From positions 62,001 to 126,000 of the forward strand of contig JAPLES010000002.1 in the NCBI GenBank assembly GCA_026391075.1: a stretch of DNA of 64,000 nt, in the 5' to 3' direction. This DNA comes from Bacteroidota bacterium (GTDB taxonomy: Bacteria; Bacteroidota; Bacteroidia; Chitinophagales; LD1). The notes below the pieces were generated by a model. It saw only the letters and a list, made by a program, of their open reading frames with translations, did not search any database and was not told the origin of the DNA. Within the stretch, counting starts at the first letter, position 1. The number at the start of each line of letters is the position of its first letter. Positions 4,339-48,731 of this stretch are shown here, piece after piece. The translations under genes were made by a program, and so were the position numbers.

Positions 4339-4373
4339 AATAGTGAATAGTAAATAGCAAGTAGTGAATAGTA
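4339..4373. repeat. Heptamer tandem array, 5 units (intergenic)
   Basis: Five consecutive 7-base units (AATAGTG, AATAGTA, AATAGCA, AGTAGTG, AATAGTA) lie just upstream of ruvA. The rest of the 177-base ruvA-gatA gap shows nothing recognisable. The array has the same size and architecture as eleven others in this window, and its unit family matches the array at 48683. Confidence 0.8.
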
Positions 4374-4509
4374 ACAGCCGAATGCTGCAACCGCTTTCAC
4401 AAATGGTATAAACTATAATTCGCTAATGTAAATTTTCAAGAGTAGAAAGGAGCGATAGGCAGCGGGATTGGGGTTTTGTTTACTAAGAGTATTTTGTTGA
4501 ATTGTCTAT

Positions 4510-5949
4510 TTAAGGATGTTCAATTTGCATCAATTTTTCTGAAAATGCAAGTAGTTTGCTCTCCTGAAATTTATCGGCTAGCAATTGCACACCAATCGGC
4601 AAACCGTTTTTGTCTTGTGCAAGCGGCAAAGAAATAGCAGGAATGCCTGTGAGATTTGCAAGCACGGTGTAAATATCTGCAAGATACATCTCTACCGGAT
4701 TATCGGTTTTCTCTCCAAATTTAAACGCTACCGTTGGTGATGTTGGCATAATAATGAAATCGTATTCTTCGAAGATGCCGCGAATTTTGTCAGTCAAAAT
4801 TCTGCGCACCTTTTGTGCACGTGAATAGTAAGCATCATAATAGCCTGAACTCAAAACGAAAGTGCCGAGCATGATGCGGTTCTTTACTTCCTTTCCGAAA
4901 CCTTCGGTGCGCGAGCGCTTGTAAACAGGGTCCATTTCGTTCGCATTCTTCGAACGGTAACCGTAGTGAACGCCATCGAAGCGCGCAAGGTTGCTCGATG
5001 CTTCTGCAGTGGTAAGCACGTAATACGTAGCAATTAAATGGTCGAGTAAATCGAAACCAACTTCTTCTACAACGTGTCCATCATTTTTCAACTTGTTCAG
5101 AAGGTTTTCTACTGCAGATTTTACTTCTGCATTTAGTCCATCACTATTCATGGTAGAAGGGAAAACAGCGATGCGCGATTTTTTTTCGGATTTTAATTCG
5201 GAAGAATAAGCAGGAACTTTTTCAGAAGAAGAAGTTGAATCGTAATTGTCTTTGCCTGAAATTACTTCCATAATCAAAGCCGCATCTTCTACATTATTTG
5301 TAAACGGACCAATCTGGTCAAAGGAAGAAGCATAAGCAATCAAGCCGTAACGCGACACTCTTCCATAAGTTGGTTTCAAACCAACCAAACCACAAAATGC
5401 TGCGGGCTGACGAATAGAGCCGCCAGTATCGGAACCTAATGAAGCGTGACACAAACCTGCCTGAACTACCACCGCACTTCCGCCCGATGAACCACCTGGA
5501 ACACGCGAATTATCTTGAGCGTTGAGAACATTTCCATAAGCAGAATTTTCATTACTCGAACCCATCGCAAATTCATCGCAGTTGGTTCTGCCAATGATGA
5601 TAGCATCATCAGCAAGCAATTGTTCTACTACAGTTGAACTATAAAGCGAAGTGAATCCTTCTAAAATTTTTGAACCAGCTGAAACTTTATGTTGCTTGTA
5701 ACAGATGTTGTCCTTTATGGCAATTACACAACCGAAAAGTTTTCCTGTTGGTTTTCCTTCTGCTGATTTTTTGTCGAGTTCTTTTGCTCTTTCAATAGCT
5801 TCACAAGAAAAAACTTCGAGGAAAGCATTGAGGTGTTTGTTGGCTTCTATTTTCAGCAAATAATCCTGCACTAACTTTTCACAGGTAGTGTTTCCCGATT
5901 TTACATCGGTCTGAATTTGCTTAATAGTTTTTTTAGACACCTCTGTCAC
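4510..5949 (-). CDS. gatA: Asp-tRNA(Asn)/Glu-tRNA(Gln) amidotransferase subunit A
   Basis: GatA is the glutaminase/amidase subunit of GatCAB, which converts Glu-tRNA(Gln) or Asp-tRNA(Asn) to the amidated form. At 479 residues it is full length. The amidase signature is complete: the catalytic lysine lies in AIKDNICYK (about residue 75), GGSSGGSAVV carries the cis-serine, and SDTGGSIRQPAA carries the nucleophile serine, followed by LVGLKPTYGRVSRYG. The C-terminus contains MPTSPTVAFKFG and the ISLPL segment typical of GatA. gatB and gatC are not in this window. tatA lies directly upstream on the same strand. Confidence 0.93.
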   Translation of the reverse strand: MTEVSKKTIKQIQTDVKSGNTTCEKLVQDYLLKIEANKHLNAFLEVFSCEAIERAKELDKKSAEGKPTGKLFGCVIAIKDNICYKQHKVSAGSKILEGFTSLYSSTVVEQLLADDAIIIGRTNCDEFAMGSSNENSAYGNVLNAQDNSRVPGGSSGGSAVVVQAGLCHASLGSDTGGSIRQPAAFCGLVGLKPTYGRVSRYGLIAYASSFDQIGPFTNNVEDAALIMEVISGKDNYDSTSSSEKVPAYSSELKSEKKSRIAVFPSTMNSDGLNAEVKSAVENLLNKLKNDGHVVEEVGFDLLDHLIATYYVLTTAEASSNLARFDGVHYGYRSKNANEMDPVYKRSRTEGFGKEVKNRIMLGTFVLSSGYYDAYYSRAQKVRRILTDKIRGIFEEYDFIIMPTSPTVAFKFGEKTDNPVEMYLADIYTVLANLTGIPAISLPLAQDKNGLPIGVQLLADKFQESKLLAFSEKLMQIEHP

Positions 5950-6002
5950 TTCAATTTATTTTTGAAAATTGATTATCGTTTTTGAATTAAAATTTTCGGG
6001 AG

Positions 6003-6233
6003 TTATGCCTTTTTCTCTTCGGCAGTTTCTTTTGCGGGGGCGGGCTTGTCTTTCATTCCCTCTTCAATTTCGGTTTTGATATTCGATTTTGCCGCATTGA
6101 ACTCACGCACACCCTGACCAATGCCGCGCATCAATTCGGGAATTCTTTTACCACCAAAAAAAATGAGGATGACAACTACGATAACAATTACCTCTGGTGT
6201 TCCTAATCCGAAGATGGCATATTGAGTTTGCAT
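6003..6233 (-). CDS. tatA: Sec-independent translocase protein TatA/E
   Basis: TatA forms the pore component of the twin-arginine export system. The protein is 76 residues when started at ATG 6233; an upstream non-ATG extension reads into unrelated sequence and is rejected. It has one N-terminal membrane helix (EVIVIVVVILIFF), the hinge FGGKRIPEL and an amphipathic helix IGQGVREFNAA, then a charged tail rich in Lys, Glu, Pro and Ala. It is 53 bases upstream of gatA on the same strand. A divergent promoter region of 144 bases separates it from the outer-membrane protein gene at 6378. Confidence 0.93.
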   Translation of the reverse strand: MQTQYAIFGLGTPEVIVIVVVILIFFGGKRIPELMRGIGQGVREFNAAKSNIKTEIEEGMKDKPAPAKETAEEKKA

Positions 6234-6377
6234 GATTGAAAATTTAGGGCGCAAAGCTATCAGAAAATGCGGAACGGTCAAGGTTTTTTGAGTGGCAAAC
6301 AGTGGCGGTTATTGCGTGGCGAATAACATTTTCTTTCTTTAATCCGAATACAACAAAACAAAAATCATTTGCGTGGC

Positions 6378-7487
6378 ATGAAAACCGGATGGCTTTTTCT
6401 TTTCATTTTTCTCTTTAGTAGCAGCCGAGCTTCTTCATTTTCCGCTATTTCCGATAGCAGCCAATACAAAATTCTTTCGCTCGATAGTTTAAGCGATGAG
6501 GACATGGCTTTGTTGGAGGAATACAAAGATTCGTTTATGCAGGAGGTGAAGTTGATTAAATCAACGCTCGGACTTAAAAAAACAAACCCGATTGACACCA
6601 CCATTGCGTTGATGAATCGTTCTTCGCATTGCGAAATCAGTGTAGATGTAACCGGTCCAATATTTTCAAACGGAAGAACTACCTCGTTGACAGGTGCCGC
6701 CTTTTATCCTTCGGTGATGTACTACCACAAAACGGGTTTGTATGCTTCGCTTTCGATGGGATTTTATACAGATAGCGCTGTACGCAAAAGTGCAGCAGTG
6801 CCATTGGTAGCTTTTTCTGCTGGCTTCTACAGAACGATTTTTAAGCGATGGACTTTCAGCATTGGCTACTCGCGTAATTTTACACTGTATCAAGAAAAAA
6901 TATATCAGGGAATGCTGAACAATTCCTTCAATCTTTTCAACTCTTTTAATTTTTGGAATTACCTAACGCTTGGTGTAAGTACTTCTGTTAGCTGGAGTAG
7001 TAATCTCACCAGCAAAAAATATTTTTTGTTTCAGGTAGACCCTAGCCATCCGGCTAGAAGGGTTTACTACAAAACTTTTACTAATGATATCGGTCAGGCT
7101 TATGGAATAAATGTGGCTTTGTCGCTGCGAAAAGATTTTTCTTTTTTCAATATTCTTGGCGCGAAAATTTTTACTGTTTCTCCGGAACTGTATTTCATCT
7201 TTGGTCACGACAATTCTGCATTTCTCATACAGGGCTTCCGGCTACCTGGTCAATCACCTCTTACCTACGATAAATTTTTTGGCCTACTCGATATTGAGCC
7301 CGGCTTTTCCGTTGACTGGCGAATTCGCAACCTTGAAATCTTCGGTACGTTTCATGTAGCTATTCCGTTTAATGACTACAATCAAACCACATCTAAACGC
7401 GTAGTCAATCCAAAAGAGTATCATCCTTATGGTAGTGGGGGAATCAAATATTTGTTCAGAACCCCGAAGAAAAAAACGCGTAAATAA
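6378..7487 (+). CDS. Putative outer-membrane beta-barrel protein, unknown function
   Basis: This is a 369-residue exported protein I do not recognise. ATG 6378 is preferred over an in-frame TTG at 6369 because the signal peptide (KTGWLFLFIFLFSSSRASS) begins there. After a charged segment at residues 20-75, the remainder alternates aromatic and polar residues in short strands (GLYASLSMGFYTD, WTFSIGYSRNFTLY, YLTLGVSTSVSWSSNL) and ends near GGIKYLF, a pattern typical of beta-barrels. Its neighbours on both sides are on the opposite strand, so it is monocistronic, and a hairpin with a T run follows the stop codon. Confidence 0.7.
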   Translation: MKTGWLFLFIFLFSSSRASSFSAISDSSQYKILSLDSLSDEDMALLEEYKDSFMQEVKLIKSTLGLKKTNPIDTTIALMNRSSHCEISVDVTGPIFSNGRTTSLTGAAFYPSVMYYHKTGLYASLSMGFYTDSAVRKSAAVPLVAFSAGFYRTIFKRWTFSIGYSRNFTLYQEKIYQGMLNNSFNLFNSFNFWNYLTLGVSTSVSWSSNLTSKKYFLFQVDPSHPARRVYYKTFTNDIGQAYGINVALSLRKDFSFFNILGAKIFTVSPELYFIFGHDNSAFLIQGFRLPGQSPLTYDKFFGLLDIEPGFSVDWRIRNLEIFGTFHVAIPFNDYNQTTSKRVVNPKEYHPYGSGGIKYLFRTPKKKTRK

Positions 7488-7504
7488 ACGGTCAGTGTTT
7501 TTTT
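7470..7504 (+). terminator. Hairpin with T run after outer-membrane protein gene
   Basis: A run of seven A followed by CGC (7470-7479) pairs with GTG followed by seven T (7495-7504), with one G-T wobble and a 15-base loop. The stop codon at 7485-7487 lies in the loop. It would terminate the plus-strand transcript and also lies in the convergent gap with the EnvC-like gene. Confidence 0.45.
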
Positions 7505-7510
7505 GTATTT

Positions 7511-7560
7511 CCCTCTCCTTCGGTGAAGGTGTTCGCCTAGGCGGAACGGATGAGGTGGGG
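7511..7560. repeat. GC-rich interspersed hairpin element
   Basis: This is a CCCTCTCCTTCGG-type sequence with stem CCTTC/GAAGG (7517-7521 and 7525-7529), then the perfect palindrome CGCCTAGGCG (7534-7543), then GATGAGGTGGGG. It resembles the elements at 10793 and 10872. It fills the gap between convergent genes and abuts the 3' end of the EnvC-like gene. Confidence 0.6.
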
Positions 7561-7562
7561 TT

Positions 7563-8867
7563 TCAATTCGCTAACCAAAGTTCCGGGTCCATCTTATCTT
7601 TTCCTTTCCAGATTTCGAGATGGACTTTCGTGAGGTCTTCATTTTTGTCTGTGTGCAATTTACCCAGCGATTGCTTGGTTGAAATTGTTTGATTGGTTTT
7701 TACCGAGACCGTTTCAATGTTGCTGTAAACGGTAAAAAATTCTCCATGCTTGATGATAACGCAATTTTGTGTGGTAGGAAGATAGAACACGCTCACTACC
7801 GTCCCGCCAAAAACTGTTCTTGCATCGGCACCGGCTTCGGTTTTAATATCCACTCCGTTGTTCTCCACTATTACACTTTTCAAAAGTGGGTGAGCGTGTT
7901 TCCCAAATTGCGAAACCACATGTCCACGCTCAACGGGCCAAGGCAACTTGCCCTGATTGTTCGAAAAATCTTTTGATAATGCCTGCTCTGCCGGGGTGAG
8001 TGGCATGGTTTCGCTTGTTCCCTTTTTAATAGAAACGTCTTTTGTTGTTCCTGGATTTTTGCGCGCTTGCTCTTCTGCTTTTTTTCTTGCCTGACGAATT
8101 TCATCTTCAATAATTGCCTGAATACGTCCGTTTAGTTTTTCAGCGGCTTTATTTTTTTCGTCTTGCGCTTTGCGTAATTTTTTTTCTTTTTCTAAAAGCA
8201 AACTCACAGCGGCATCCTTTTCTTTTTTCTCGCTTTCGAGTTCTTCCTTTTGGGCGGTTTGTTTCACGAGCAGGTTTTCTTTTTGCTCTTTGGTATCCAC
8301 CAAATTATCTTTCTTCTGTTTCAATTCATCAATAGAAACCTGAATAGCTTTTGCTTGACCTCTGCGGTATTCCGCAATTTTTAAAAGATAATTGTAACGA
8401 TGCAGTGCATTGTAAAACGATGTAGAAGAAAGCAGGAAAGCAGTTTGGTTCTGCAAAGTTGTATTGGCATAACTCGTCCGCAACATGCGCGCATAGTCGG
8501 CTTTCATTTTTTCTACTTCGGTTGACTGTGTCGAAATCTCCACTTCGGTTTTGTCAATTGTTTCATCGAGATTGCCAATTTGATTATTGATGTTGCCAAT
8601 CAGATTTTCGCGCGATTTTATTTTGGCTTGCAGCGAAAGAATTTCGCCCATGCTCTTTTCTTTCTTGGCATTATTGCTCTTTAATGCCGCCTCAATCGTT
8701 TTGATTTCATCCTGCAACTTCTTCATTTGTTGTTGAAGCTGCTCCTTTTTTATTTTGGTAGTTGTTTGCGCAGGAGAGACGATAGACAATAGACAATAGA
8801 CGATAGATAACAGCAAGGCGAGGCTGTTCACTTTGATTTTTGAACTTTGATTTTTGATTTTACTCAC
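7563..8867 (-). CDS. EnvC-like murein hydrolase activator (degenerate M23/LytM)
   Basis: A 434-residue exported protein with a signal segment (residues 15-33), a long coiled coil (about 36-270, rich in Lys, Glu and Gln with KKxxEEQARK patterns) and a C-terminal LytM/M23 domain (about 310-432). The zinc-site residues are eroded: VENNGVDIK lacks the first histidine, VHLEIW keeps only the second histidine of HxH, and TVYSNI replaces the usual TxYxHL. By analogy with E. coli EnvC it should activate amidases at division rather than cut peptidoglycan. The start is GTG 8867, overlapping the DUF4292 stop by four bases; no nearby in-frame ATG exists. Oddly, most of the leader is encoded by two heptamer arrays. 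Confidence 0.82.
   Translation of the reverse strand: MSKIKNQSSKIKVNSLALLLSIVYCLLSIVSPAQTTTKIKKEQLQQQMKKLQDEIKTIEAALKSNNAKKEKSMGEILSLQAKIKSRENLIGNINNQIGNLDETIDKTEVEISTQSTEVEKMKADYARMLRTSYANTTLQNQTAFLLSSTSFYNALHRYNYLLKIAEYRRGQAKAIQVSIDELKQKKDNLVDTKEQKENLLVKQTAQKEELESEKKEKDAAVSLLLEKEKKLRKAQDEKNKAAEKLNGRIQAIIEDEIRQARKKAEEQARKNPGTTKDVSIKKGTSETMPLTPAEQALSKDFSNNQGKLPWPVERGHVVSQFGKHAHPLLKSVIVENNGVDIKTEAGADARTVFGGTVVSVFYLPTTQNCVIIKHGEFFTVYSNIETVSVKTNQTISTKQSLGKLHTDKNEDLTKVHLEIWKGKDKMDPELWLAN
8777..8811. repeat. Heptamer array, 5 units, encoding EnvC signal peptide core
   Basis: Units AGACGAT, AGACAAT, AGACAAT, AGACGAT, AGATAAC on the plus strand. On the coding strand they give the LSIVYCLLSIV part of the signal peptide. 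The array is in the same 7-base phase as the one at 8826: the 49-base offset equals seven units and 14 bases lie between them. Confidence 0.85.
8826..8860. repeat. Heptamer array, 5 units, encoding EnvC N-terminus
   Basis: Units GTTCACT, TTGATTT, TTGAACT, TTGATTT, TTGATTT on the plus strand. On the minus strand they encode KIKNQSSKIKVN immediately after the GTG start of the EnvC-like protein. Confidence 0.85.
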
Positions 8868-9607: not shown

Positions 9608-9768
9608 TTTTGCTTTTCTGTAAATAAAGTGCCAAAGATAATTTCGCTCTTCACAAATAATTTTCTTTATAACGTTCCCATTGCTGAAAGGCTTTCTTCG
9701 CTTAACAAAATTTGATTTTTAACAACGTGTATCGGGAATATATTTGCCGTCCATTAAAAACAAAACAT

Positions 9769-10779
9769 ATGGAAGTAATAGCAGGAAACACAACAGTTGA
9801 TATTGCCGCTCTCAACGAAAAAATAAATCGTGAAAGCGCATTCGTAGATATTCTGAACATGGAGCTTGGCAAAACTATTGTAGGGCAAAAATATATGGTG
9901 GAGCGATTGATGCTCGCTATGCTTGGCAACGGACACATTCTTCTCGAAGGTGTTCCAGGTTTAGCAAAAACGCTCGCGATAAAATCTCTTGCACAAGCCA
10001 TTCATGCAAAGTTCTCGCGCATTCAGTTTACACCAGATTTGCTTCCAGCCGATTTAGTAGGAACCATGATTTATAATCAAAAGGATAATGAATTTGTAGT
10101 GAAGAAAGGACCGGTGTTTGCCAACTTTGTTTTGGCAGATGAAATAAATCGTGCGCCTGCAAAAGTGCAATCAGCATTGTTAGAAGCTATGCAGGAAAGA
10201 CAAGTTACCATTGGTGAACACACGTATAAATTAGAAGACCCGTTCTTGGTTCTTGCCACACAAAATCCTATTGAGCAGGAAGGAACATATCCACTACCGG
10301 AAGCGCAGGTTGACCGTTTTATGTTGAAAGCGGTTATCACTTACCCAAAGAAAGAAGAAGAGCAACTCATCATTCGTCAGAATATGCAGATGAGTGATAA
10401 GCAAATTAACCCTGTGGTGAAAGCAGAAGATATTGTTGCTGCGCGTAAAACTGTCCGTGAAGTTTACATGGATGAAAAAATTGAGCGCTACATTCTCGAT
10501 ATCGTTTTTGCTACACGCAAGCCCGAAGATTATAAACTGACTAAACTCAAATCACTGATTAGCTACGGAGGTTCACCTCGTGCAAGCATCAACCTGGCTA
10601 TTGCAGCAAAAGCGTATGCTTTCATCAAACGCAGAGGATATGTAATTCCGGAAGATGTAAGGGCCATTTGTTTTGATGTAATGCGTCATCGTGTTGGTTT
10701 GACTTACGAAGCCGAAGCCGAAAATATTACCAGCGAAGAAGTGATTTCTGAAATTTTGAATGCGGTTGAAGTTCCGTAA
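9769..10779 (+). CDS. MoxR-family AAA+ ATPase
   Basis: MoxR ATPases act as chaperones for partner proteins with von Willebrand factor A domains. The protein is 336 residues from ATG 9769; upstream in-frame codons are non-ATG and not family-like. Walker A lies near residue 60 (variant GVPGLAKT, typical of MoxR), Walker B is LADEINRAPAKVQSALLEAMQERQ split around residue 120, sensor 1 is VLATQNPIEQEGTYPLPEAQ, and the arginine region is DRFMLK. It is first gene of a five-gene plus-strand run with DUF58, a BatD-like protein and two VWA proteins, the standard partner set. Confidence 0.93.
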   Translation: MEVIAGNTTVDIAALNEKINRESAFVDILNMELGKTIVGQKYMVERLMLAMLGNGHILLEGVPGLAKTLAIKSLAQAIHAKFSRIQFTPDLLPADLVGTMIYNQKDNEFVVKKGPVFANFVLADEINRAPAKVQSALLEAMQERQVTIGEHTYKLEDPFLVLATQNPIEQEGTYPLPEAQVDRFMLKAVITYPKKEEEQLIIRQNMQMSDKQINPVVKAEDIVAARKTVREVYMDEKIERYILDIVFATRKPEDYKLTKLKSLISYGGSPRASINLAIAAKAYAFIKRRGYVIPEDVRAICFDVMRHRVGLTYEAEAENITSEEVISEILNAVEVP

Positions 10780-10792
10780 AGCCCCACCTAAA

Positions 10793-10811
10793 TCCTCCCC
10801 GAAGGGGAGGA
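10793..10811 (-). repeat. GC-rich interspersed hairpin element (intergenic)
   Basis: A perfect 8-bp stem TCCTCCCC/GGGGAGGA with a GAA loop, followed by bases matching the tail (CACCTAAATC) of the element class. It lies in the 55-base moxR-DUF58 gap, in opposite orientation to the copy at 10872. It could also act as an attenuator or mRNA-stabilising hairpin inside the operon. Confidence 0.7.
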
Positions 10812-10834
10812 CTTAATACAAATACAATAGTGCG

Positions 10835-11800
10835 ATGAAGCTGCCATTTTCAAATGAGGACAAATCTAAAGCCCTCTCCTTCGGAGAGGGTTTGGGAGAG
10901 GTGGCGTCTGACAAAAGAAAGAAGCTAAGAAGAATCGAAATCAAAACCAGGAAACTCTCTAATCAGATTTTCTCGGGCAGTTATCATTCTGCGTTTAAAG
11001 GAAGAGGTATTTCCTTTAGCGAAGTTCGCGAATATCAGTATGGCGATGACATTCGCGCCATTGATTGGAATGTAACAGCGCGCAATCGCAAACCATTCAT
11101 CAAAGTTTTTGAAGAAGAAAGAGAGTTGACTGTGATGTTGCTGATTGATGTAAGTCAATCTTCTTTTTTCGGAACACAAAATGAGTTCAAGAATCACATC
11201 ATTGCCGAGATAAGCGGAGTGATTGCTTTTTCTGCTATTACCAATAACGATAAAGTAGGCGTTCTGTTTTTTAGCGACACGATTGAGAAATTCATTCCGC
11301 CCAAAAAAGGAAAAACACATATTCTGCGGATTATTTCAGAGATATACGATTTCCATCCAAAGCAAACCGGCACTAATCTTCCCGAGGCGTTGAAGTATTT
11401 CAATAATGTGGTGAAGAAAAAATCAATTGCGTTTTTGGTTTCCGATTTTTTAAGTAAAGATTCTCAGCAAGAAAAATTCCAAAAGGATTTTAAGAAGTCA
11501 TTGAGTATTGTCGGCAAGAAACACGACTTAATCGGTTTGCATATTTATGATGAACGCGAAGCCAACATGCCGGATATTGGCTTGGCAAAAGTAGTTGACA
11601 GCGAAAGCGGAAAAGAATTTTGGATTGATACCAGCGATAAAGCGCTTCGTGAAAAATATGCGAAAACCTTTCACGAAAATGTGCGCAGCACAAAAGATTT
11701 ATTTGGCAAGAGCGGAGCGCAGTTAGAATCTGTTAAGACAGAAGACAACTACGTGATTTCGCTGATGAATATGTTTAAGAAAAGAGAAAGCAAAAGATGA
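10835..11800 (+). CDS. DUF58 domain protein (MoxR partner)
   Basis: DUF58 proteins pair with MoxR ATPases in envelope-associated operons. The 321-residue protein carries the signature FKGRGISFSEVREYQYGDD split around residue 55-75, then IRAIDWNVTARNRKPFIK, then a VWA-like fold opening MLLIDVSQSSFFG (about residue 100). The first 26 residues are unusual: ALSFGEGLGEVA is the translation of a GC-rich hairpin element (10872-10890), so the N-terminal extension is probably recent and dispensable. A later start is possible, but no ATG lies between 10835 and the conserved body. The stop overlaps the next gene's ATG by four bases. Confidence 0.87.
   Translation: MKLPFSNEDKSKALSFGEGLGEVASDKRKKLRRIEIKTRKLSNQIFSGSYHSAFKGRGISFSEVREYQYGDDIRAIDWNVTARNRKPFIKVFEEERELTVMLLIDVSQSSFFGTQNEFKNHIIAEISGVIAFSAITNNDKVGVLFFSDTIEKFIPPKKGKTHILRIISEIYDFHPKQTGTNLPEALKYFNNVVKKKSIAFLVSDFLSKDSQQEKFQKDFKKSLSIVGKKHDLIGLHIYDEREANMPDIGLAKVVDSESGKEFWIDTSDKALREKYAKTFHENVRSTKDLFGKSGAQLESVKTEDNYVISLMNMFKKRESKR
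10872..10890 (+). repeat. GC-rich hairpin element inside coding sequence
   Basis: A perfect 8-bp stem CCCTCTCC/GGAGAGGG with a TTC loop, followed by TTTGGGAGAGGTGGC. It is translated in frame as part of the DUF58 protein's N-terminus (ALSFGEGLGEVA). Together with the copy at 10793 it forms an inverted pair about 80 bases apart. Confidence 0.75.
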
Positions 11801-12774
11801 TGAGTTGGCGGTTCGCAATTTACGGTTCACAGTTAGTAAAGTTTTTACGCTTTGCAGCTATTGCATTTTTGTATTTGCCGTTAGCTGTCAACTGTCAACA
11901 GCCAACGGCTGTTCTACGCGCTGACTCCACTCAAATTCAAATTGGCGACCATCTCAATATTCGTTTAACGGTTAAGAGTCCGAACAACTTGGTTGTTCCT
12001 TTTCCTGCTGCTGCTGATACACTCGGAAATTTAGAAATGGTTTCTGCTGCTAAAATTGATACAAGCGCAGAAGGCAGTAATAAAGTTCTTTCGCAACTCT
12101 ATACAGTTTCTGCTTACGATTCAGGAGAGTTTCATGCCGGACCGGTTAAGATTTATTTCAAAAACAATAACGGAGAATTGGATAGCGTTCTTTCAAATGA
12201 CATTCCGGTTACAGTAAATACTTTGAATGTTGATACCGCTAAACCTTTCAAAGCCATTAAAGCTCCTTTAGATGTTCCTTATTCTTGGAGAGAATTTATT
12301 CCTTACATCATTGGAGCAGTAGTTTTGCTGATTGCGATTATTGTCGGCATCATTCTTTGGAAGAAATACCGCAAACCAAAACAAGCGGTGATTGAGCGAC
12401 CAAAACCAAAAGACCCTGCACACATCTGGGCGCGCAAAGAGTTGAAAAAACTGGAAGAAGAAAAAGTTTGGCAAGGCGATGATGTAAAACTGTATTACAG
12501 CCGGTTGACCGATGTGCTTCGCTTGTATGTAGAATATCGTTACGGCTGGTATGCAATGGAATCAACTACCGAAGAAATTCAAAGTGAAATTGAAAACTAC
12601 AACCTGAAAGAAAAGGCAAAAGAAAATCTGCTTTCGATTTTGCGTGCAGCTGATTTAGTGAAGTTCGCGAAGATGATTCCGATGCCTGATGCAAATATCC
12701 GTGCAATGGAAAGCGCTTATAAGTTTATTGATTTCACTGAGCCGAACGAAAACAAACCGGAAGAGAAAAAATAA
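11797..12774 (+). CDS. BatD-like membrane protein of the MoxR/Bat operon
   Basis: A 325-residue exported, single-span membrane protein. After a leader (residues 1-37), residues 38-150 look like an Ig-like beta domain as in BatD N-termini (DSTQIQIGDHLNIRLTVKSP). A membrane helix follows at residues about 168-190 (IPYIIGAVVLLIAIIVGII), then a cytoplasmic helical domain ending in WYAMESTTEEIQSEI and AMESAYKFIDFT. The position between DUF58 and batA fits the short BatD/DUF4381-type proteins of such operons. It overlaps both neighbours (ATGA upstream, TAATG downstream). Two heptamer arrays flank the hydrophobic core of its leader. Confidence 0.65.
   Translation: MMSWRFAIYGSQLVKFLRFAAIAFLYLPLAVNCQQPTAVLRADSTQIQIGDHLNIRLTVKSPNNLVVPFPAAADTLGNLEMVSAAKIDTSAEGSNKVLSQLYTVSAYDSGEFHAGPVKIYFKNNNGELDSVLSNDIPVTVNTLNVDTAKPFKAIKAPLDVPYSWREFIPYIIGAVVLLIAIIVGIILWKKYRKPKQAVIERPKPKDPAHIWARKELKKLEEEKVWQGDDVKLYYSRLTDVLRLYVEYRYGWYAMESTTEEIQSEIENYNLKEKAKENLLSILRAADLVKFAKMIPMPDANIRAMESAYKFIDFTEPNENKPEEKK
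11803..11837. repeat. Heptamer array, 5 units, in BatD-like leader
   Basis: Units AGTTGGC, GGTTCGC, AATTTAC, GGTTCAC, AGTTAGT. They encode residues 3-14 (SWRFAIYGSQLV) directly after the start codon of the BatD-like gene. Confidence 0.8.
11880..11907. repeat. Heptamer array, 4 units, at BatD-like signal cleavage region
   Basis: Units GTTAGCT, GTCAACT, GTCAACA, GCCAACG. They encode LAVNCQQPTA at the end of the leader. The offset from the array at 11803 is 77 bases, again a multiple of seven. Confidence 0.75.
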
Positions 12775-25721: not shown

Positions 25722-28700
25722 CTACATGCTTCGCCTGTATTGACCTCCCACCTCATACAGCGCATGACTAATTTGCCCGAGCGAACAAACCTTTACGGTT
25801 TCCATCAGCTCGGCAAAAAGATTTCCGTTGGTAGTAGCCACCTGCTGTAAACGCTTCAGTGCTTCTTCGCTTTCTTTTTCGTGGCGCTTTTTAAAAGCGT
25901 TGAGAGCAGCGATTTGAAATTCTTTTTCTTCAGTGGAAGAACGAATTACTTCTTTAGGAATAATTGTTGGCGAGCCGTTTTTAGAAAGGAAAGTATTGAC
26001 ACCTACAATCGGAAACTCGCCCGTATGTTTTTGGTGTTCGTAAAACATACTTTCCTCTTGAATTTTATTGCGCTGATACATGCGCTCCATTGCACCCAGC
26101 ACTCCACCGCGCTCTGTGATTCTTTTGAATTCAGTCAGCACCGCTTCTTCAACAAGCGCAGTCATTTCTTCAATCAGAAAAGAACCTTGATTCGGATTTT
26201 CGTTTTTCGCAGTTCCTAATTCGCGATTGATGATGAGTTGAATTGCCATTGCTCTGCGCACACTTTCTTCGGTAGGCGTTGTGATGGCTTCATCGTAAGC
26301 ATTCGTGTGCAACGAATTGCAGTTATCATAAATAGCATAGAGCGCCTGTAGTGTTGTGCGGATATCATTGAAATCAATTTCCTGCGCGTGCAAACTTCTG
26401 CCGCTGGTTTGAATATGATATTTCAGTTTCTGCGAGCGCTCGTTGCCTTTGTATTTCTGCTTCATGGCCTTCGCCCAAATTCTGCGCGCCACGCGTCCAA
26501 TCACCGAATACTCAGGGTCCATACCATTGCTGAAAAAGAAAGAAAGGTTAGGCGCGAAGTCGTCAATCTTCATTCCTCTACTCAAATAATATTCTACATA
26601 AGTAAAACCGTTGGCAAGCGTAAACGCGAGTTGTGTAATCGGGTTGGCACCGGCTTCGGCAATGTGGTAACCACTGATAGAAACCGAATAGAAATTCTGC
26701 ACTTTATTCTCGATGAAATACTGCTGCACATCGCCCATCATCTTCAGCGCAAACTCGGTGCTGAAGATACAGGTGTTTTGCGCCTGGTCTTCTTTCAAAA
26801 TATCTGCCTGCACCGTTCCGCGAACAGAAGAAAGCGCTTTAGCTTTTAGTTTTTCGTAAACATCTTTTGGTAAAACTTTATCACCGGACAAGCCAAGTAT
26901 TTGCAAACCGAGTCCATTGTTTCCTTTCGGAAGTTCTCCATTGTATGAAGGTAAGTCTTGTGTCTTGTGTCTTGTGTCTTGAATCTTGTTTTCTGCAATA
27001 TATTTCTCACACTCCTGGTCAATCGCAGCATTCATAAAGAAAGCGAGAATCATCGGAGCCGGTCCGTTGATGGTCATGCTCACCGAAGTTTTCGGACTGC
27101 ATAAATCGAAACCGCTGTAAAGTTTTTTTGCGTCATCAACAGTTGCAATGCTTACTCCTGAATTTCCAACCTTGCCGTAAATATCGGGGCGGTGGTCAGG
27201 GTCTTCGCCATAAAGTGTCACCGAATCAAAAGCAGTTGATAAACGAATAGCGGGTTGGTCTAGCGACACATAATGGAAACGTTTGTTGGTGCGCTCCGGT
27301 CCGCCTTCACCGGCAAACATACGCGTAGGGTCTTCGCCTTCGCGCTTGAGCGGAAACACACCGGCTGTGTAAGGAAACTCACCCGGCACATTTTCCTGCA
27401 ACTGCCACTTCAGAATATCGCCCCAGTCTTTATAGCGTGGCAAATACACTTTGCGGATAGTTGTTCCGCTGAGCGATTTAGATGTGAAGGGCAAATCCAA
27501 AACTTTATCGCGCACTTGAAATGCAAATGTATCGCCTGAATATTTTTTTTGTTTCTCATTCCACTCATCCAACAACTTTTTGCATTCGGGGTGAAGTAGT
27601 TTTTCGAAGTGAGTGATTAGAAGTTCCACTTCTTTAAGAAGTGGAACTTCTTTTGCCACTTCTTTCACTCCATTCAGCTGATACAACTTAGTAGCAATTG
27701 CACACTGCTCATTCACCCATTCATCGTAACGCTCGTTGTTCTCGGCAATCTCTGCCAGATAACGAACACGAGCCGGAGGAATGATTTGTGATTTAGTAAC
27801 GGTGTTCTTTGCTGAAGTATGTTTTACTTTAAAATCAACTTTGGTTTTCTCTGTCATCTTGTGCATCAGCAATTCGAACAAGTGATTCACACCCGCATCG
27901 TTAAACTGAGATGCTATCGTTCCCACTACAGGAACATCTTCGTCCTTCGTCATAAATATTTGATGACTGCGCTTGTATTGTTTGCGCACATCTGCTAATG
28001 CATCCAGCGCACCTGCCTTATCAAATTTGTTGATGGCAATAGCATCGGCATAGTCAAGCATGTTTATTTTTTCGAGCTGCGTTGGCGCTCCGTATTCAGG
28101 AGTCATTACCAATAGCGAAACATTGCAGTAGTCGAGAATCGAAGCATCGCTTTGTCCGGTGCCCGCGCTTTCCAGAATAATAAAATCGAACTGGGCGGCT
28201 TTGCAAACATCAATTGCTTCTTGCACATGCACGCTGAGTGCCTTATCGCTTTCACGTGTAGCCAACGAGCGCATATAAGCGCGTGGATTCGAAATAGAAT
28301 TCATTCTTATTCTATCGCCCAATAAAGCACCACCGGTTTTCTTTTTACTCGGGTCAACAGAAATTACAGCAATAGTTTTATCGGTATAGCTCTTCAAAAA
28401 CCTGCGGACGATTTCATCCGTCACTGAAGATTTTCCTGCGCCACCAGTGCCGGTAATACCGAGAACGGGAATGTTGGATGTCGGGTGTCCGATGTCCGAT
28501 GATGCTTTCCCGTTTTCTGCAAGTGTGATGTATTGACCAATCCGTTTCCAGTCGCTTGTATTTACTTCCGACTTCGGACTTCCGACTTCGGACTTCGTTA
28601 CTGTTTCATAATCGCAATGCTTTACCACATCTTCAATCATACCTTCCAGCCCCATTGTTCTGCCATCATCGGGCGAATAAATTTTTACGATTCCGTATTT

Positions 28701-29030
28701 GTGCAACTCTTCAATTTCTTGCGGATGAATTGTTCCTCCGCCACCGCCAAATATTTTGATGTGGCTGCAACCGCGCTCTTTCAGCAAATCATACATGTAT
28801 TTGAAAAATTCAACGTGCCCGCCCTGATAACTCGTAATGGCAATACCCTGTGCATCTTCCTGAATAGCACACTCCACAATTTCCTGCGCGCTGCGATTGT
28901 GCCCGAGGTGAATTACCTCTGCACCTTTTGCTTGCATAATTCTGCGCATAATATTAATGGCGGCATCGTGGCCATCGAAAAGTGAAGCGGCCGTTACAAT
29001 TCGGACTTTGTGTTTCAGTTGTAAACTCAT
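25722..29030 (-). CDS. icmF: Fused isobutyryl-CoA mutase IcmF (B12 + G-protein chaperone + mutase)
   Basis: IcmF isomerises isobutyryl-CoA and n-butyryl-CoA (some members also others) using adenosylcobalamin, with its own GTPase chaperone fused in. The 1,102 residues show a B12-binding domain (about 8-140; [11 protein letters not shown] holds the cobalt-binding histidine), a MeaI-type GTPase (about 185-410; [13 protein letters not shown]-loop, [18 protein letters not shown]) and the mutase barrel (about 500-1,090; [36 protein letters not shown]). Three heptamer arrays are translated in frame: two in the B12-GTPase linker ([20 protein letters not shown]) and one in the mutase region ([11 protein letters not shown]). 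A 33-bp palindrome encodes part of the GTPase-mutase linker. The C-terminal codons are duplicated at 25043-25111. Confidence 0.9.
26955..26989. repeat. Heptamer array, 5 units, in icmF mutase region
   Basis: Units GTCTTGT, GTCTTGT, GTCTTGT, GTCTTGA, ATCTTGT. On the coding strand they give [11 protein letters not shown] between two conserved mutase blocks ([13 protein letters not shown] upstream and [10 protein letters not shown] downstream), likely a surface loop. Confidence 0.88.
27619..27651. repeat. Perfect 33-bp palindrome inside icmF
   Basis: Arms of 16 bases (27619-27634 and 27636-27651, core AGTTCCACTTCTT) around a single T. A partial third copy of the arm (CCACTTCTTT) follows at 27657. 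It encodes [12 protein letters not shown] in the helical linker between the GTPase and mutase domains. Confidence 0.8.
28471..28498. repeat. Heptamer array, 4 units, in icmF interdomain linker
   Basis: Units ATGTTGG, ATGTCGG, GTGTCCG, ATGTCCG. On the coding strand they give [10 protein letters not shown] just before the P-loop domain. Confidence 0.8.
28564..28598. repeat. Heptamer array, 5 units, in icmF interdomain linker
   Basis: Units ACTTCCG, ACTTCGG, ACTTCCG, ACTTCGG, ACTTCGT. They encode [12 protein letters not shown] after the B12-binding domain. The unit family matches the mutL array at 39749. Confidence 0.88.
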
Positions 29031-38305: not shown

Positions 38306-38321
38306 TTGAAAGTTGAGCGAT

Positions 38322-39134: not shown

Positions 39135-40976
<1,842 letters not shown>

Positions 40977-43448: not shown

Positions 43449-43505
43449 CGGCACGGTTTCTTGAAAAATTGAAAGTAGAAGAATTTTGAAATTTTCAAAA
43501 CTACG

Positions 43506-44300: not shown

Positions 44301-44336
44301 GAGCTGCTAATTTCTCTATTCCATGTTAGCTGAACA

Positions 44337-45542: not shown

Positions 45543-45587
45543 TAACCAAAATTTTACATGAATATATGAAAGTAGGTTAGAGAAGTT

Positions 45588-46556: not shown

Positions 46557-46567
46557 GAAAGTTTTTG

Positions 46568-46599
46568 TTGCAAATTGAAAATATAAATTTCTACTTTTA
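46568..46599 (+). promoter_or_regulatory. Candidate Bacteroidota-type promoter
   Basis: TTG at 46568-46570 and TACTTTTA at 46592-46599 (Bacteroidota -7 consensus TAnnTTTG), 21 bases apart, lie 26 bases ahead of the lipoprotein start in a divergent gap. The last consensus base differs. Confidence 0.3.
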
Positions 46600-46625
46600 G
46601 CAATCAGTATACTTAACCTCGTGTA

Positions 46626-47369
46626 ATGAAACGAATTTTCTTTTTTCTTTTCGGCTGTTTAATTCTATGCTACTACGGTTGCGATAAAAAGAAATCGGAT
46701 TCTACTGCAATAACCTCATACCCTCTTCAAGCAGGAAATATTTGGGTTTATGATGTAACATACCATCATGATTCCGTTACCACAAACTACACTTATACCT
46801 TTCGGTGTGTTGGAGATACAACCATCAATGGAATTACATGTTCCCAATTAATAAAAACGGAAGCGAATCTTAATACTGGAGCAAGCCAAACATTTAGTCA
46901 CTATTACAAAAATCAGAGCGATGGTTTTTACTTTATTGCTGGGGATTCTTTAACTGATGACATGCTGTATTTCAAAAATGAATTAGCGCTCTTTCCCAAA
47001 TTAGCTTTCAAAACAGAATCCACCTCGAGAGGAATTTTTGTAGCAGACCCGCCATTAAAGCTACTATCGTTTCCAACGAACCAAAATGATTCTTGGATTT
47101 CAAATGAATACGGTAGTCAGTCGCATTTCGGAAGAAAATATTTAGGATATGAAAACACGCTTGCTTCTGCTGGTACTTTCTACTGCATAAAAGTTCAACC
47201 TTATTTTGACAACGACCACAATGGCATCGCTGATTCGTCCATTACAAACTATCAATGGTTTGGAAACAAAGGCTTGGTCAAAGAAACTTCAAAGCAAGTA
47301 GTAACAGATTTTAGTGGTGCCATTTTCATTATTGAGCACTCAGCAAATCTAAGGTCTATAAACTTTTAA
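46626..47369 (+). CDS. Hypothetical lipoprotein
   Basis: A 247-residue lipoprotein: FFLFGCLILCYYGCDKK holds a lipobox cysteine near residue 19. The mature part starts with YPLQAGNIWVYDVTYH, a beginning common among Bacteroidota lipoproteins of unknown function, and is beta-rich throughout. It ends converging with the YbaB gene and overlapping it by four bases on the opposite strand. Confidence 0.65.
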   Translation: MKRIFFFLFGCLILCYYGCDKKKSDSTAITSYPLQAGNIWVYDVTYHHDSVTTNYTYTFRCVGDTTINGITCSQLIKTEANLNTGASQTFSHYYKNQSDGFYFIAGDSLTDDMLYFKNELALFPKLAFKTESTSRGIFVADPPLKLLSFPTNQNDSWISNEYGSQSHFGRKYLGYENTLASAGTFYCIKVQPYFDNDHNGIADSSITNYQWFGNKGLVKETSKQVVTDFSGAIFIIEHSANLRSINF

Positions 47370-47650
47370 GTCAATCCAGGCATCTTCGGCATAGCTCCCA
47401 TCATTTCACTTTGCATTACACCATCGGCTTTTTCTAATGCTTCGTTAGTTGCAACAAGAATTTTTTGTTCAAGCAATGCTTTGTCGTCCTGTTTCAGAAT
47501 TTCTACACGTTTCACTTTTTTATTTCCCGAAACAGCAACGCGCGCATATTCATTTTCAGCAACTACTTCAATGGTATCAAGACGCTTTTTTGCCTCTTCC
47601 ATTTTTTCCTGCAGTTCTTTCAGTTGTTTCATTTGGTCGAAGAAGCCCAT
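47366..47650 (-). CDS. YbaB/EbfC-family nucleoid-associated protein
   Basis: A 94-residue small DNA-binding protein of the YbaB/EbfC family. The N-terminal helix is MGFFDQMKQLKELQEKMEEAKKRL split across the first 24 residues. Core strands IEVVAENEYARVAVSGNKKVKRVEI and helix DKALLEQKILVATNEALEKA follow, with a methionine-rich end. The usual companions dnaX and recR are not adjacent here. A heptamer array begins immediately upstream of the start codon. Confidence 0.9.
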   Translation of the reverse strand: MGFFDQMKQLKELQEKMEEAKKRLDTIEVVAENEYARVAVSGNKKVKRVEILKQDDKALLEQKILVATNEALEKADGVMQSEMMGAMPKMPGLT

Positions 47651-47651
47651 A

Positions 47652-47679
47652 ATTAGATATTAGATTTTAGACGTTAGAT
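47652..47679. repeat. Heptamer array, 4 units, upstream of ybaB
   Basis: Units ATTAGAT, ATTAGAT, TTTAGAC, GTTAGAT, one base from the YbaB start codon on the upstream side. It occupies the position of a ribosome-binding region, so it may affect translation. The rest of the 99-base gap to the YajQ gene is A/T-rich with repeated GAATT. Confidence 0.8.
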
Positions 47680-47749
47680 TGAAATGCAAAAAACCGAATT
47701 CTGAATTCATTTTCGAATTTCCGAATTCTCAAATTTACTAATTCGGCTT

Positions 47750-48241
47750 TTAGCTTTTCATGTTTTCGTATTGCAACGGAAAACCAAAATCACCTTTGCT
47801 CAGATGCGCCATTACTTCCTGCAGGTCGTCAATTTTTTTTCCCGCCACGCGAACAATCATATCCATTTGCGTTGCCTGCACTTTTAATCCGGTATCTTTT
47901 ATTGCCTTCGCAATTTTTTTCATCGTCTCTTTGTCTAAACCATTTTTCAGTTTCACATCTTTCTTAATCATAGGTCCCGATGCATAATGAGCTTTACTCA
48001 CATCATAACTGCGCGGGTCAATTCCCTGCTTAGAGCCTCGCGCAATAATTACATCAATCACCGTATTCAAACGCATATCGTTTTCGGTGGTAATCAAAAG
48101 CGTCAACTCTTTTTTATTGAAATCAATCTCGGTATGCGAGCCATGAAAATCATAACGATTCACGATTTCTTTTTTCGCTACGTTAATAGCGTTCTCTACT
48201 GCTTGTGAATCTACTTTGCTAAGTACATCGAATGAAGGCAT
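47750..48241 (-). CDS. yajQ: YajQ-family nucleotide-binding protein
   Basis: A 163-residue member of the YajQ/DUF520 family, a two-domain RNP-like fold; some members bind cyclic di-GMP. Diagnostic blocks are MPSFDVLSKVDSQAVENAIN, EIVNRYDFHGSHTEIDFN, LKNGLDKETMKKIAKAIKDTG and KGDFGFPLQYENMK at the end. Length is normal. A heptamer array begins seven bases upstream of the start. Confidence 0.95.
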   Translation of the reverse strand: MPSFDVLSKVDSQAVENAINVAKKEIVNRYDFHGSHTEIDFNKKELTLLITTENDMRLNTVIDVIIARGSKQGIDPRSYDVSKAHYASGPMIKKDVKLKNGLDKETMKKIAKAIKDTGLKVQATQMDMIVRVAGKKIDDLQEVMAHLSKGDFGFPLQYENMKS

Positions 48242-48247
48242 GTTTAA

Positions 48248-48275
48248 AGTATTGAGTAGTTAGTATTAAGTATTA
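48248..48275. repeat. Heptamer array, 4 units, upstream of yajQ
   Basis: Units AGTATTG, AGTAGTT, AGTATTA, AGTATTA, lying seven bases upstream of the YajQ start codon. Together with the array before ybaB this places two such arrays at leader positions within 600 bases. Confidence 0.8.
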
Positions 48276-48338
48276 AGACAAATACAATTTCTGTTTTCAA
48301 ACGATGATTTTATTTCTGCTTGCTGCCGCTTTTCTTCG

Positions 48339-48731
48339 CTACTGCTTTATCTGTGACTTAAAAAAGCCAGCTCCGTCCTTAGTCATTCGATTCACGTATT
48401 CCTTTCCATCTTTATTAAAAACAATGTAGCCGCTCGAATCGTTCAGGTAATAATTACCCGAAAGAAATTCTCTCCCGTTAATCTGCCACATAATCATTCC
48501 CGCTTGCGAAACGGGTTTTTTTGGCGCGGTCTTCGGCTCAAAAAAACCGTTGAATAATTTCACGCTGCGCCCATCAAGTGATAAGCTTCCTCCTTTACCA
48601 ATCATCATAACTACATCCATGCTCGTGGTAGAATCGCGAAGGGTTATAAAACTTTTGAGGGGCAATGGTTGCTGAGAGAAACAGCAAGTAGTAAATAGTA
48701 AATAGTAAGTAGTAAATACAAATGCTCTCAT
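48339..48731 (-). CDS. Exported hypothetical protein with repeat-encoded signal peptide
   Basis: A 130-residue exported protein from ATG 48731; a longer start at 48761 adds ten residues ahead of the signal. The signal peptide MRAFVFTTYYLLFTTCCFSQ is encoded largely by a heptamer array. The mature part (residues 21-130) has TTSMDVVMMIGKGGSLSLDGRSVKL, then MIMWQINGREFLSGNYYLN and YIVFNKDGKEYVNRMTKDG, a two-repeat beta unit found in Bacteroidota proteins of unknown function (DUF6799-like, by memory). It stands alone on the minus strand. Confidence 0.6.
   Translation of the reverse strand: MRAFVFTTYYLLFTTCCFSQQPLPLKSFITLRDSTTSMDVVMMIGKGGSLSLDGRSVKLFNGFFEPKTAPKKPVSQAGMIMWQINGREFLSGNYYLNDSSGYIVFNKDGKEYVNRMTKDGAGFFKSQIKQ
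48683..48717. repeat. Heptamer array, 5 units, encoding a signal peptide
   Basis: Units AGCAAGT, AGTAAAT, AGTAAAT, AGTAAGT, AGTAAAT. On the coding strand they give FTTYYLLFTTC, the hydrophobic core of the exported protein's leader. The unit family matches the intergenic array at 4339. Confidence 0.9.

What the first reader, a model, noticed from the sequence alone, without database searches (positions are those of the whole stretch)
4339..48717. Twelve dispersed arrays of 4-5 imperfect 7-bp units, most with their own heptamer
Seen: arrays at 4339, 8777, 8826, 11803, 11880, 26955, 28471, 28564, 39749, 47652, 48248 and 48683. Each is 28-35 bp and each is built of exactly 4 or 5 units. Units mostly differ between sites (AGACAAT, TTGATTT, GTCTTGT, CTTCGGA, AGTAAAT, AGTATTA and others), but many fit a loose pattern GTNNNAA/GTCNNAN in some rotation. 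Uniform length with variable unit argues against simple slippage, which would give variable lengths. I recall similar repeat-encoded peptides ([22 protein letters not shown]) in other Bacteroidota proteins, but know no mechanism. Inference: a process that writes short heptamer patches into the genome, for example a repair or terminal-addition activity or a tiny mobile unit.
Basis: partly seen in the sequence, partly recalled or inferred. Interest (0 to 1): 0.75.

Follow-up and report, generated by a model that had tools for sequence, protein, structure and literature searches.

The report
Fixed-length heptamer repeat patches
This bacterium's genome is dotted with short patches in which one seven-letter DNA word is repeated four or five times; the patches have an almost fixed length, share a lineage-specific vocabulary of words, and lie at sites that tolerate change, which ordinary repeat slippage does not explain well.

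Summary
In 460 kb of this genome 56 four-unit arrays of period 7 stand against 0 in shuffles. Length peaks at 4-5 units and drops sharply, alike in coding and non-coding DNA. Heptanucleotide repeats are a known prokaryotic class (Mrazek 2007, seen through PMC4679880), and four-unit convergent pairs are reported in Xanthomonas (PMC4692102), so the kind is known. Four things go further. (1) Words recur, and the vocabulary differs between clades of one genus (AGTCCGA and AGACAAT in G000/G004/G015, AATCAGA in G017). (2) Orthologous arrays that keep their word keep their length; coding sites that changed word or lost the array mostly differ by 0 or 21 bp. (3) Neighbouring arrays are usually convergent, purine-rich arm first, here and in other phyla. 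(4) Substitutions within a word sit at preferred positions. No reverse transcriptase (PF00078) or Ku was found in G000. Best reading: a lineage-limited process writes about 30-bp heptamer patches and spreads their words in trans; enzyme unknown. Rivals: 7-nt slippage, modular binding sites.

The parts
4339..4374 (+). heptamer array, unit AATAGTA, just upstream of the start codon of a RuvA-like gene (3736-4332, -)
   Evidence: gene by Pfam RuvA_N
8777..8807 (+). heptamer array, unit AGACAAT, at the N-terminal end of an M23-peptidase ORF (7563-8867, -, GTG start); left arm of a convergent pair
   Evidence: Pfam
8832..8861 (-). heptamer array, unit AATCAAA on the minus strand; right arm of the convergent pair with 8777
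11803..11837 (+). weak, diverged heptamer array (AGTTGGC GGTTCGC ...), N-terminus of ORF 11797-12774 (+); below the detection threshold
   Evidence: seen; not in the list
11880..11914 (-). weak heptamer array (GTCAACT ...), possible partner of 11803; below threshold except 11885-11899; the complementarity to 11803 is not significant
26955..26989 (-). heptamer array, unit ACAAGAC on the minus strand, inside the fused methylmalonyl-CoA mutase ORF 25722-29030 (-); the G015 ortholog has equal-length non-repeat DNA
28471..28501 (+). heptamer array, unit TGTCCGA, linker of the same ORF; left arm of a convergent pair
28564..28597 (-). heptamer array with alternating units AGTCCGA/AGTCGGA on the minus strand; right arm of the pair
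39720..39730 (+). single-unit remnant (GTCCGAT) at the place where G015 and G004 hold a four-unit left arm; 21 bp shorter here
39749..39779 (-). heptamer array, unit AGTCCGA on the minus strand, in the linker between the MutL transducer and dimerisation domains (ORF 39135-40976, -)
47652..47679 (.). heptamer array, unit ATTAGAT, directly upstream of the start codon of a YbaB-family gene (47366-47650, -)
48247..48277 (+). heptamer array, unit AAGTATT, directly upstream of the start codon of a DUF520 gene (47750-48241, -); followed by ACAAATACAA
48679..48718 (+). heptamer array, unit AGTAAAT, coding for the signal-peptide-like N-terminus of ORF 48339-48761 (-); AGACAAT at the same register in G015 and G004

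Best explanation
The arrays are heptanucleotide repeat patches produced by a lineage-limited mutational process that writes about 28-36 bp of DNA as 4-5 copies of one 7-nt word, then stops. The word is mostly drawn from a vocabulary already present elsewhere in the same genome, so finished blocks or their words are copied in trans to new sites. Once written, an array rarely grows or shrinks and decays at about the rate of its flanks, until it is lost or rewritten with another word. Arrays survive where sequence is tolerated: start-codon regions, signal peptides, linkers, loops. SHOWN: period 7, length mode, word recurrence and clade vocabulary, length stability of same-word orthologs, exchange of words at one site, convergent purine-to-pyrimidine order, position-specific substitutions. 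INFERRED: that birth is a single burst, that copying in trans happens at DNA level, and that the 7-nt step reflects repeated realignment of a 3' end on its template (convergent arms would be the two 3' ends of one gap or break). The enzyme is unknown; no reverse transcriptase (PF00078) or Ku was found in this genome.
For: Length mode at 4-5 units, coding and non-coding alike, also in loci from other phyla. Clade vocabulary in whole-genome counts, 3 words x 40 genomes, up to 2 mismatches, overlapping matches counted: AGTCCGA x3 G015 45, G000 25, G004 19, G017 0; AATCAGA x3 G017 57, G000 6, G015 5, G004 3; AGACAAT x3 G000 60, G015 34, G004 28, G017 8. Recurrence beyond random 7-mers in the G000, G017, G004 and G015 samples. 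One loop of near-equal length (within 3 nt) in five species: AGTCCGA or variants (G015, G004), AGACAAT (G000), AGACACA (G001), degenerate (G016). Same-word orthologs: length change 0 or +/-1 in 16 of 18 comparisons; array identity 0.86 equals flank identity 0.86 in 13 equal-length same-word pairs. Five of 16 G015 stretches picked for AGTCCGA share the variant unit AGTCTGA at or near the 3' end of the array, with unrelated flanks. Convergent pairs: genus 11 purine-first against 0 reversed of 18; other phyla 40 against 7 of 71.
Against: No enzyme, donor molecule or intermediate is identified. Word sharing between loci could in part be a sequence preference: a weak common motif exists and substitutions sit at preferred positions, which neutral copying does not predict. 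Within-genome against between-clade word similarity: near-identical pairs p<1/400 for G015/G017, 0.02 for G000/G017, 0.06 for G004/G017; mean similarity does not differ for G000/G017 (p=0.46). At non-coding sites a changed or missing array is length-neutral (within 1 bp) in only 2 of 12 comparisons, so length neutrality may be owed to selection on proteins. 21-bp differences (5 of 15 coding array/no-array comparisons) are what 3-unit slippage would give. [quoted passage not shown] One G015 array of about ten units exceeds the size rule (L244). The nearest relatives are 88% identical, so births were not seen directly. Sampled stretches were not random.
Confidence: 0.42

Rival explanations
1. 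Ordinary replication slippage with a polymerase-dependent 7-nt step (the proposal of Mrazek and colleagues 2007, as told in PMC4679880 and PMC4692102): a local 7-mer is duplicated a few times, and coding arrays are filtered for frame, so +3 units (21 bp) is favoured.
For: Period 7 dominates in loci of other phyla too. 21-bp differences in 5 of 15 coding array/no-array and 3 of 10 coding other-word comparisons. Concerted unit changes, e.g. AGTAAAT against AGACAAT at 48689.
Against: The length peak is the same in non-coding DNA, and arrays of 2.5-3.5 units are rarer than those of 4-5. Same-word orthologs do not change copy number in 16 of 18 comparisons. Words recur across loci and are clade-specific. 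Unlike words stand at one orthologous site: AGTCCGA and AATCAGA, AGTCCGA, AGACAAT and AGACACA.
Confidence: 0.3
2. The arrays are binding sites of a modular single-strand RNA- or DNA-binding protein that contacts 7 nt per module, with 4-5 modules; the vocabulary follows the protein's specificity. MacGregor (PMC4679880) raised translational regulation and cold-shock proteins for TAACTGA repeats.
For: 54 of 124 arrays lie within -60..+120 of a start codon against 16.8 expected. Position-specific substitutions inside words. Narrow range of unit numbers.
Against: Same-word arrays are no more conserved than their flanks: 0.86 against 0.86 in 13 pairs. Sites swap between unlike words. 62 word classes in 121 arrays. 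43 of 124 lie inside genes. Start regions are also where signal peptides and leaders tolerate change.
Confidence: 0.18
3. A small mobile element (REP/BIME, MITE or RPE-like palindrome) moved by a transposase such as a REP-associated Y1 transposase; arrays are its ends.
For: Convergent inverted pairs; recurring inner-flank words AATACA (21 against 2.5 expected) and AACAGCC (11 against 0.37); arrays inside genes.
Against: No shared flank beyond a few bases among the AGTCCGA loci compared (by eye); no target-site duplication seen, though none was searched for by program. Y1_Tnp genes occur in array-rich and array-poor genomes alike. Arms often carry different words.
Confidence: 0.06
4. Chance, assembly artefact or plain protein-level selection.
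For: Arrays code for usable signal peptides, linkers and sorting-domain strands; several genomes are fragmented drafts.
Against: None in shuffles by the unit-consensus test; the same arrays at orthologous sites in separate assemblies, e.g. L256/L259 and L254/L006; 46 of 124 arrays are intergenic against 18.9 expected.
Confidence: 0.03

Closest known systems
Heptanucleotide long simple sequence repeats of prokaryotes (Mrazek, Guo and Shah 2007; not held, known here through PMC4679880 and PMC4692102)
   Same: Excess of 7-nt units over other unit lengths in many prokaryote genomes.
   Different: Here the length mode (4-5 units), its drop beyond 5.5, copy-number stability of same-word orthologs, clade vocabulary and convergent polarity are measured; the proposed slippage does not predict them.
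GGGAATC repeats of Xanthomonas and GGGGA(T/C)T repeats of Nostoc (PMC4692102, passages)
   Same: Most Xanthomonas arrays have four units (range 2-26); 70 and 75 convergent pairs reported in two species, always one on each strand.
   Different: One G-rich word, studied as G-quadruplexes, and extensive length variation between the two species reported; the main words here (AGTCCGA, AGACAAT, AATCAGA) have no G-tracts, so their four units cannot be owed to quadruplexes. In Nostoc only a few paired repeats were found.
TAACTGA direct repeats of Beggiatoaceae, Cyanobacteria and some Bacteroidetes (PMC4679880)
   Same: Heptamer arrays of two to six copies, the majority just upstream of start codons in the Maribeggiatoa genome.
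   Different: A single word; its class AACTGAT is seen in other-phyla loci but is not among the words they share with the genus sample.
STRR heptamer repeats of heterocystous cyanobacteria (Mazel 1990; recalled, with search listings only)
   Same: Lineage-specific heptamer families (recalled).
   Different: Not compared by sequence here.
Constant-size, variable-sequence tandem repeats of Bacillus (PMC8161180, abstract and passages)
   Same: Unit size fixed while sequence varies between families and species.
   Different: Units of 52 or 20-21 nt; that study takes 10 nt as the minimum repeat length, so 7-nt repeats would show up as 14-nt ones.

Membership tests
Heptanucleotide simple sequence repeats (Mrazek 2007 class) | Tandem 7-nt units longer than expected by chance | tested here: met
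Heptanucleotide simple sequence repeats (Mrazek 2007 class) | Period 7 exceeds neighbouring periods | tested here: met
   (56 against 11, 8 and 3 for periods 6, 8, 9)
Heptanucleotide simple sequence repeats (Mrazek 2007 class) | Origin by continuing slippage: copy number varies between relatives | tested here: inconclusive
   16 of 18 same-word ortholog comparisons unchanged in length, but 21-bp differences among array/no-array pairs; no strain-level pairs available
Xanthomonas-type convergent heptamer repeats | Four-unit mode | tested here: met
Xanthomonas-type convergent heptamer repeats | Convergent pairs | tested here: met
   11 purine-first and 0 reversed of 18 adjacent pairs in the genus; 40 and 7 of 71 in other phyla; at a looser threshold 13 and 2 of 28, 44 and 10 of 89
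Xanthomonas-type convergent heptamer repeats | One G-tract word able to form G-quadruplexes | tested here: not met
   62 word classes; main words lack GGG
REP/BIME or MITE with transposase | Conserved palindromic consensus or terminal repeats | tested here: not met
   many word classes; no shared flank beyond a few bases among AGTCCGA loci, by eye
REP/BIME or MITE with transposase | Association with a Y1 (RAYT) transposase | tested here: inconclusive
   35 of 40 genomes have Y1_Tnp, array-rich and array-poor alike
Repeat cDNA made by a reverse transcriptase (retron/DRT kind) | Reverse transcriptase gene (PF00078) | tested here: not met
   none in G000 (98% complete), nor in array-bearing G001 (73% complete), G004 (89%), G010 and G016; present in G015 (3) and G017 (1)
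Templated insertions of bacterial end joining | Ku (PF02735) | tested here: not met
   0 of the 16 genus members searched, G000-G015; G016 and G017 were not in that search

The most novel reading that the evidence does not exclude
Bacteria of several phyla carry an unrecognised DNA-writing activity that lays down fixed-length patches (4-5 copies of a 7-nt word, purine-rich strand pointing at the centre of the event) and takes the word from a genome-wide, evolving vocabulary in trans, so that whole genomes change their heptamer dialect within a genus. It would be a mutational source that supplies signal peptides, linkers and untranslated leaders with ready-made sequence.
Probability: 0.3. Interest if true: 0.85.

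Novelty: new variant of a known kind. Interest (0 to 1): 0.62.

Why it matters
Heptamer excess in prokaryotes has been on record since 2007 with polymerase slippage as the proposed cause (told in PMC4679880 and PMC4692102). A narrow unit number, stability of same-word orthologs and a clade-specific vocabulary make that proposal testable and point to copying in trans. Arrays with the same length mode occur in loci of other phyla, they alter proteins, and they could explain recurrent low-complexity peptides in predicted bacterial proteins (inference). The genus offers array-rich and array-poor species for finding the responsible gene.

Tried and rejected
Hairpin constraint as the sole cause: paired arms are complementary (6 of 7 or better) in 3 of 11 purine-first pairs in the genus and 23 of 40 in other phyla (random words 7.5% and 12.3%); unpaired arrays show an excess of complementary DNA on the inner side only in other phyla (174 arrays, p=5.7e-5; genus 83 arrays, p=0.36). 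A universal word: other-phyla words overlap the genus words at chance (9 classes against 7.5, sd 2.4). Reverse transcriptase, Ku and Y1 transposase as drivers. Frame as the reason for four units: non-coding arrays have the same length mode. G-quadruplexes: the main words have no G-tracts.

Errors of mine: a variable overwrite broke the reverse-complement function. The motif run and the complementarity figures are invalid and were redone; the purine/pyrimidine pair counts do not use that function and stand. One search did not remove edge units, so position 1 of AGTCCGA and position 7 of AGACAAT may be edge effects, and part of position 5 too where the variant is the last unit; for AATCAGA the bias is weaker and its highest position is 2 (17 of 64), not 5 (15 of 64), with few inner units.

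Sampling biases: the G000 stretches were partly chosen on contigs with CTTCGGA matches, so the AAGTCCG count in the sample is inflated; one search repeats the test without that class and on contig C14 alone. The density table rests on 20-460 kb per genome. Genes were called by a simple open-reading-frame rule.
Full report
Observation. The window is G000:C14:62001-126000 of a 3.6 Mb draft genome in 91 contigs. Period 7 is specific. At a strict score the window holds 5 hits of period 7 and none of any other period from 2 to 30 except the multiples 14 and 21, and 10 shuffles hold none. In 460 kb of the genome the unit-consensus test gives 56 for period 7, against 11, 8 and 3 for periods 6, 8 and 9, and 0 in a shuffle; periods 4 and 5 give 47 and 18 at the proportionate but much weaker threshold, and 3 and 0 at the strictest one, where period 7 gives 21. 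A lag score gives 28 for period 7, 3 in a shuffle, and at most 6 for other periods that are not multiples of 7.

Length. In 1.17 Mb from six array-rich genomes of the genus the number of units peaks at 4-5 (31 arrays at 4-4.5, 29 at 4.5-5), falls to 7 at 5-5.5 and to a single array beyond that, while arrays of two to three and a half units are fewer (11, 8, 11 in half-unit bins; the method sees little below 2.3 units). Coding and non-coding arrays show the same peak, so the reading frame is not its cause. Periods 6, 8, 9, 10 and 11 show no such peak. Arrays away from the search seed in 837 kb of loci from other phyla show the same peak (23, 29 and 27 in the bins from 3.5 to 5, then 5), with an added long tail. 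Outside the sample one G015 array has about ten units (L244).

Where they lie. Of 124 arrays, 46 are intergenic (18.9 expected), 34 lie in the first 40 codons (11.4 expected), 43 inside genes (86.6 expected) and 1 in the last 25 codons (7.1 expected); 54 lie within -60..+120 of a start codon (16.8 expected). Genes were called by a simple open-reading-frame rule. Examples: signal-peptide-like N-termini in which a purine-strand array gives the polar part and a pyrimidine-strand array the hydrophobic part (L205); the linker of MutL between its transducer and dimerisation domains at 39749; and three arrays in a fused methylmalonyl-CoA mutase gene.

Words. The arrays do not sample random local heptamers. 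In G000, 56 arrays fall in 38 classes where 53.8 (sd 1.4) are expected; without the AGTCCGA and TGTCCGA classes, which my choice of stretches favoured, 47 arrays fall in 36 classes where 45.4 (sd 1.2) are expected; G017 (15 classes in 18 arrays, 17.8 expected), G004 (16 in 20, 19.7) and G015 without AGTCCGA (16 in 22, 21.7) agree. Whole-genome pattern counts over 40 genomes show a vocabulary that differs between clades of the genus: AGTCCGA G015 45, G000 25, G004 19, G010 6, G009 5, G001 2, G016 1, none in the other 33; AATCAGA G017 57, G001 14, G016 10, G000 6, G015 5, G009 5, G006 4, G004 3, others 0-2; AGACAAT G000 60, G015 34, G004 28, G017 8, G001 3, G023 2, others 0-1 (overlapping matches counted; reversed-pattern controls 0, except 1-2 in three genomes for AGACAAT). 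In the sampled arrays near-identical word pairs are commoner within a genome than between G017 and G000, G015 or G004 (p=0.02, <1/400 and 0.06), but mean similarity does not differ for G000/G017 (p=0.46). Outside the genus the words overlap at chance, so I see no universal word. There is a weak common degenerate pattern, and within the words substitutions sit at preferred positions: position 5 in 30 of 58 for AGTCCGA and 34 of 77 for AGACAAT; for AATCAGA positions 2 and 5 lead with 17 and 15 of 64.

Comparison with sister species. G000, G015 and G004 are about 88% identical in the MutL region. In 55 ortholog comparisons among them, some sites counted from more than one side, 18 keep the word, 15 hold another word and 22 hold no array by my detector. 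Of the 18, 16 keep their length within 1 bp. Coding sites with an array on one side only differ by 0 in 5 of 15 and by 21 bp in 5 of 15; coding sites with another word differ by 0 in 5 of 10 and by 21 bp in 3 of 10. Non-coding sites with another word or no array are within 1 bp in only 2 of 12, so length neutrality is a coding feature and may be owed to selection. In 13 same-word pairs of equal length the array is as conserved as its flank (0.86 and 0.86). Five other-word pairs of equal length have 0.61 in the array and 0.84 in the flank, with 26 of 33 unit-spaced double changes identical, but they represent two sites only and 24 of the 26 come from the 48689 site. At 26955 the G015 ortholog has equal-length DNA without a repeat. 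In one loop five species hold near-equal-length DNA with AGTCCGA or variants (G015, G004), AGACAAT (G000), AGACACA (G001) or a degenerate array (G016); in another, G015 and G004 have AGTCCGA, G017 has AATCAGA, and G000, G001 and G010 have a non-repeat loop of similar length; in a third, G015 has 21 bp more than G000. Five of 16 G015 stretches picked for AGTCCGA share the variant unit AGTCTGA: the last unit in four, followed by two diverged units in L244.

Pairs. Adjacent arrays within 120 bp are mostly convergent with the purine-rich arm first: genus 11, reversed 0, same-strand 5, undefined 2, of 18; other phyla 40, reversed 7, same-strand 22, undefined 2, of 71; at a looser threshold 13 and 2 of 28, and 44 and 10 of 89. 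Arms are complementary (6 of 7 or better) in 3 of 11 and 23 of 40 (random words 7.5% and 12.3%). On the inner side the words AATACA (21 against 2.5 expected, 18 of them within 7 bases of the array; 3 on the outer side) and AACAGCC (11 against 0.37) recur; in one locus the latter belongs to a terminator-like hairpin (seen).

Which machinery. G000 has no reverse-transcriptase gene by PF00078, nor have array-bearing G001 (73% complete), G004 (89%), G010 and G016; G015 has 3 and G017 1. Ku is absent from the 16 genus members searched, G000-G015. Y1 transposases occur in array-rich and array-poor genomes alike. Array density is high in G000, G001, G004, G010, G015 and G017 (6.5-14.3 per 100 kb) and 0-2.5 in most other sampled genomes, with G005 at 7.5 and G009 at 3.8 (small samples; no array in 20 kb of G016, whose genome does match AATCAGA).

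Literature. Heptanucleotide excess is known: PMC4679880 (introduction and the Bacteroidetes section read, passages elsewhere) and PMC4692102 (passages) report that Mrazek 2007 found it and proposed slippage over a 7-nt polymerase contact; the 2007 paper itself is not held. [quoted passage not shown] PMC8161180 (abstract and passages) reports constant-size, variable-sequence repeats in Bacillus. PMC12699852 (passages) reports that a subset of repeats of unit length six to nine is highly enriched in prokaryotic phyla and that short tandem repeats are indel hotspots in Pseudomonadota. Searches for the DNA words and the encoded peptides found no paper. In the listings of the other searches made I saw no report of a clade vocabulary of heptamers or of their length stability; the library lacks most subscription journals.

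Judgement. The kind is known; the narrow unit number, the stability of same-word orthologs and the clade-specific vocabulary are not what slippage predicts. I commit to a writing-and-copying process in trans at 0.42, with slippage (0.30) and modular binding sites (0.18) as serious rivals. These odds were moved from 0.45 and 0.27 on rechecking, because length neutrality holds at coding sites only and the concerted changes come mainly from one site. The step from pattern to enzyme is inference.

Noticed in passing
L051:12848-13019 (G015), ortholog of window 28471-28615: In place of the two heptamer arrays, G015 carries an inverted pair of a different palindromic element (AGCCCCCAAACCCCCGAAGGGGGCTTTAAGG and its reverse complement, by eye) flanking the same gene segment.
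   Followed up: partly
L034:3877-3936, 9673-9785, 11800-11856: Other dispersed short repeats, some matching in both orientations, found in many places of the genus genomes.
   Followed up: no
window 39135-40976: The MutL mismatch-repair gene itself carries heptamer arrays in its linker in several species of the genus, with different words.
   Followed up: partly
L040:5464, L040:10497, L041:10795: Heptamer arrays encode strands of C-terminal domains that look like type IX secretion sorting domains (FPNPS...NYELRITNYE); family assignment is recalled, not searched.
   Followed up: no
L257 (G015:C6:146660-146880): A terminator-like hairpin AACAGCCAAAGA...TCTTTGGCTGTT next to an AGTCCGA array; the word AACAGCC recurs beside arrays.
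   Followed up: partly
   Followed up: no
L244 (G015:C5:48951-49200): The longest AGTCCGA array seen, about ten units including end variants, an exception to the 4-5 unit rule.
   Followed up: no
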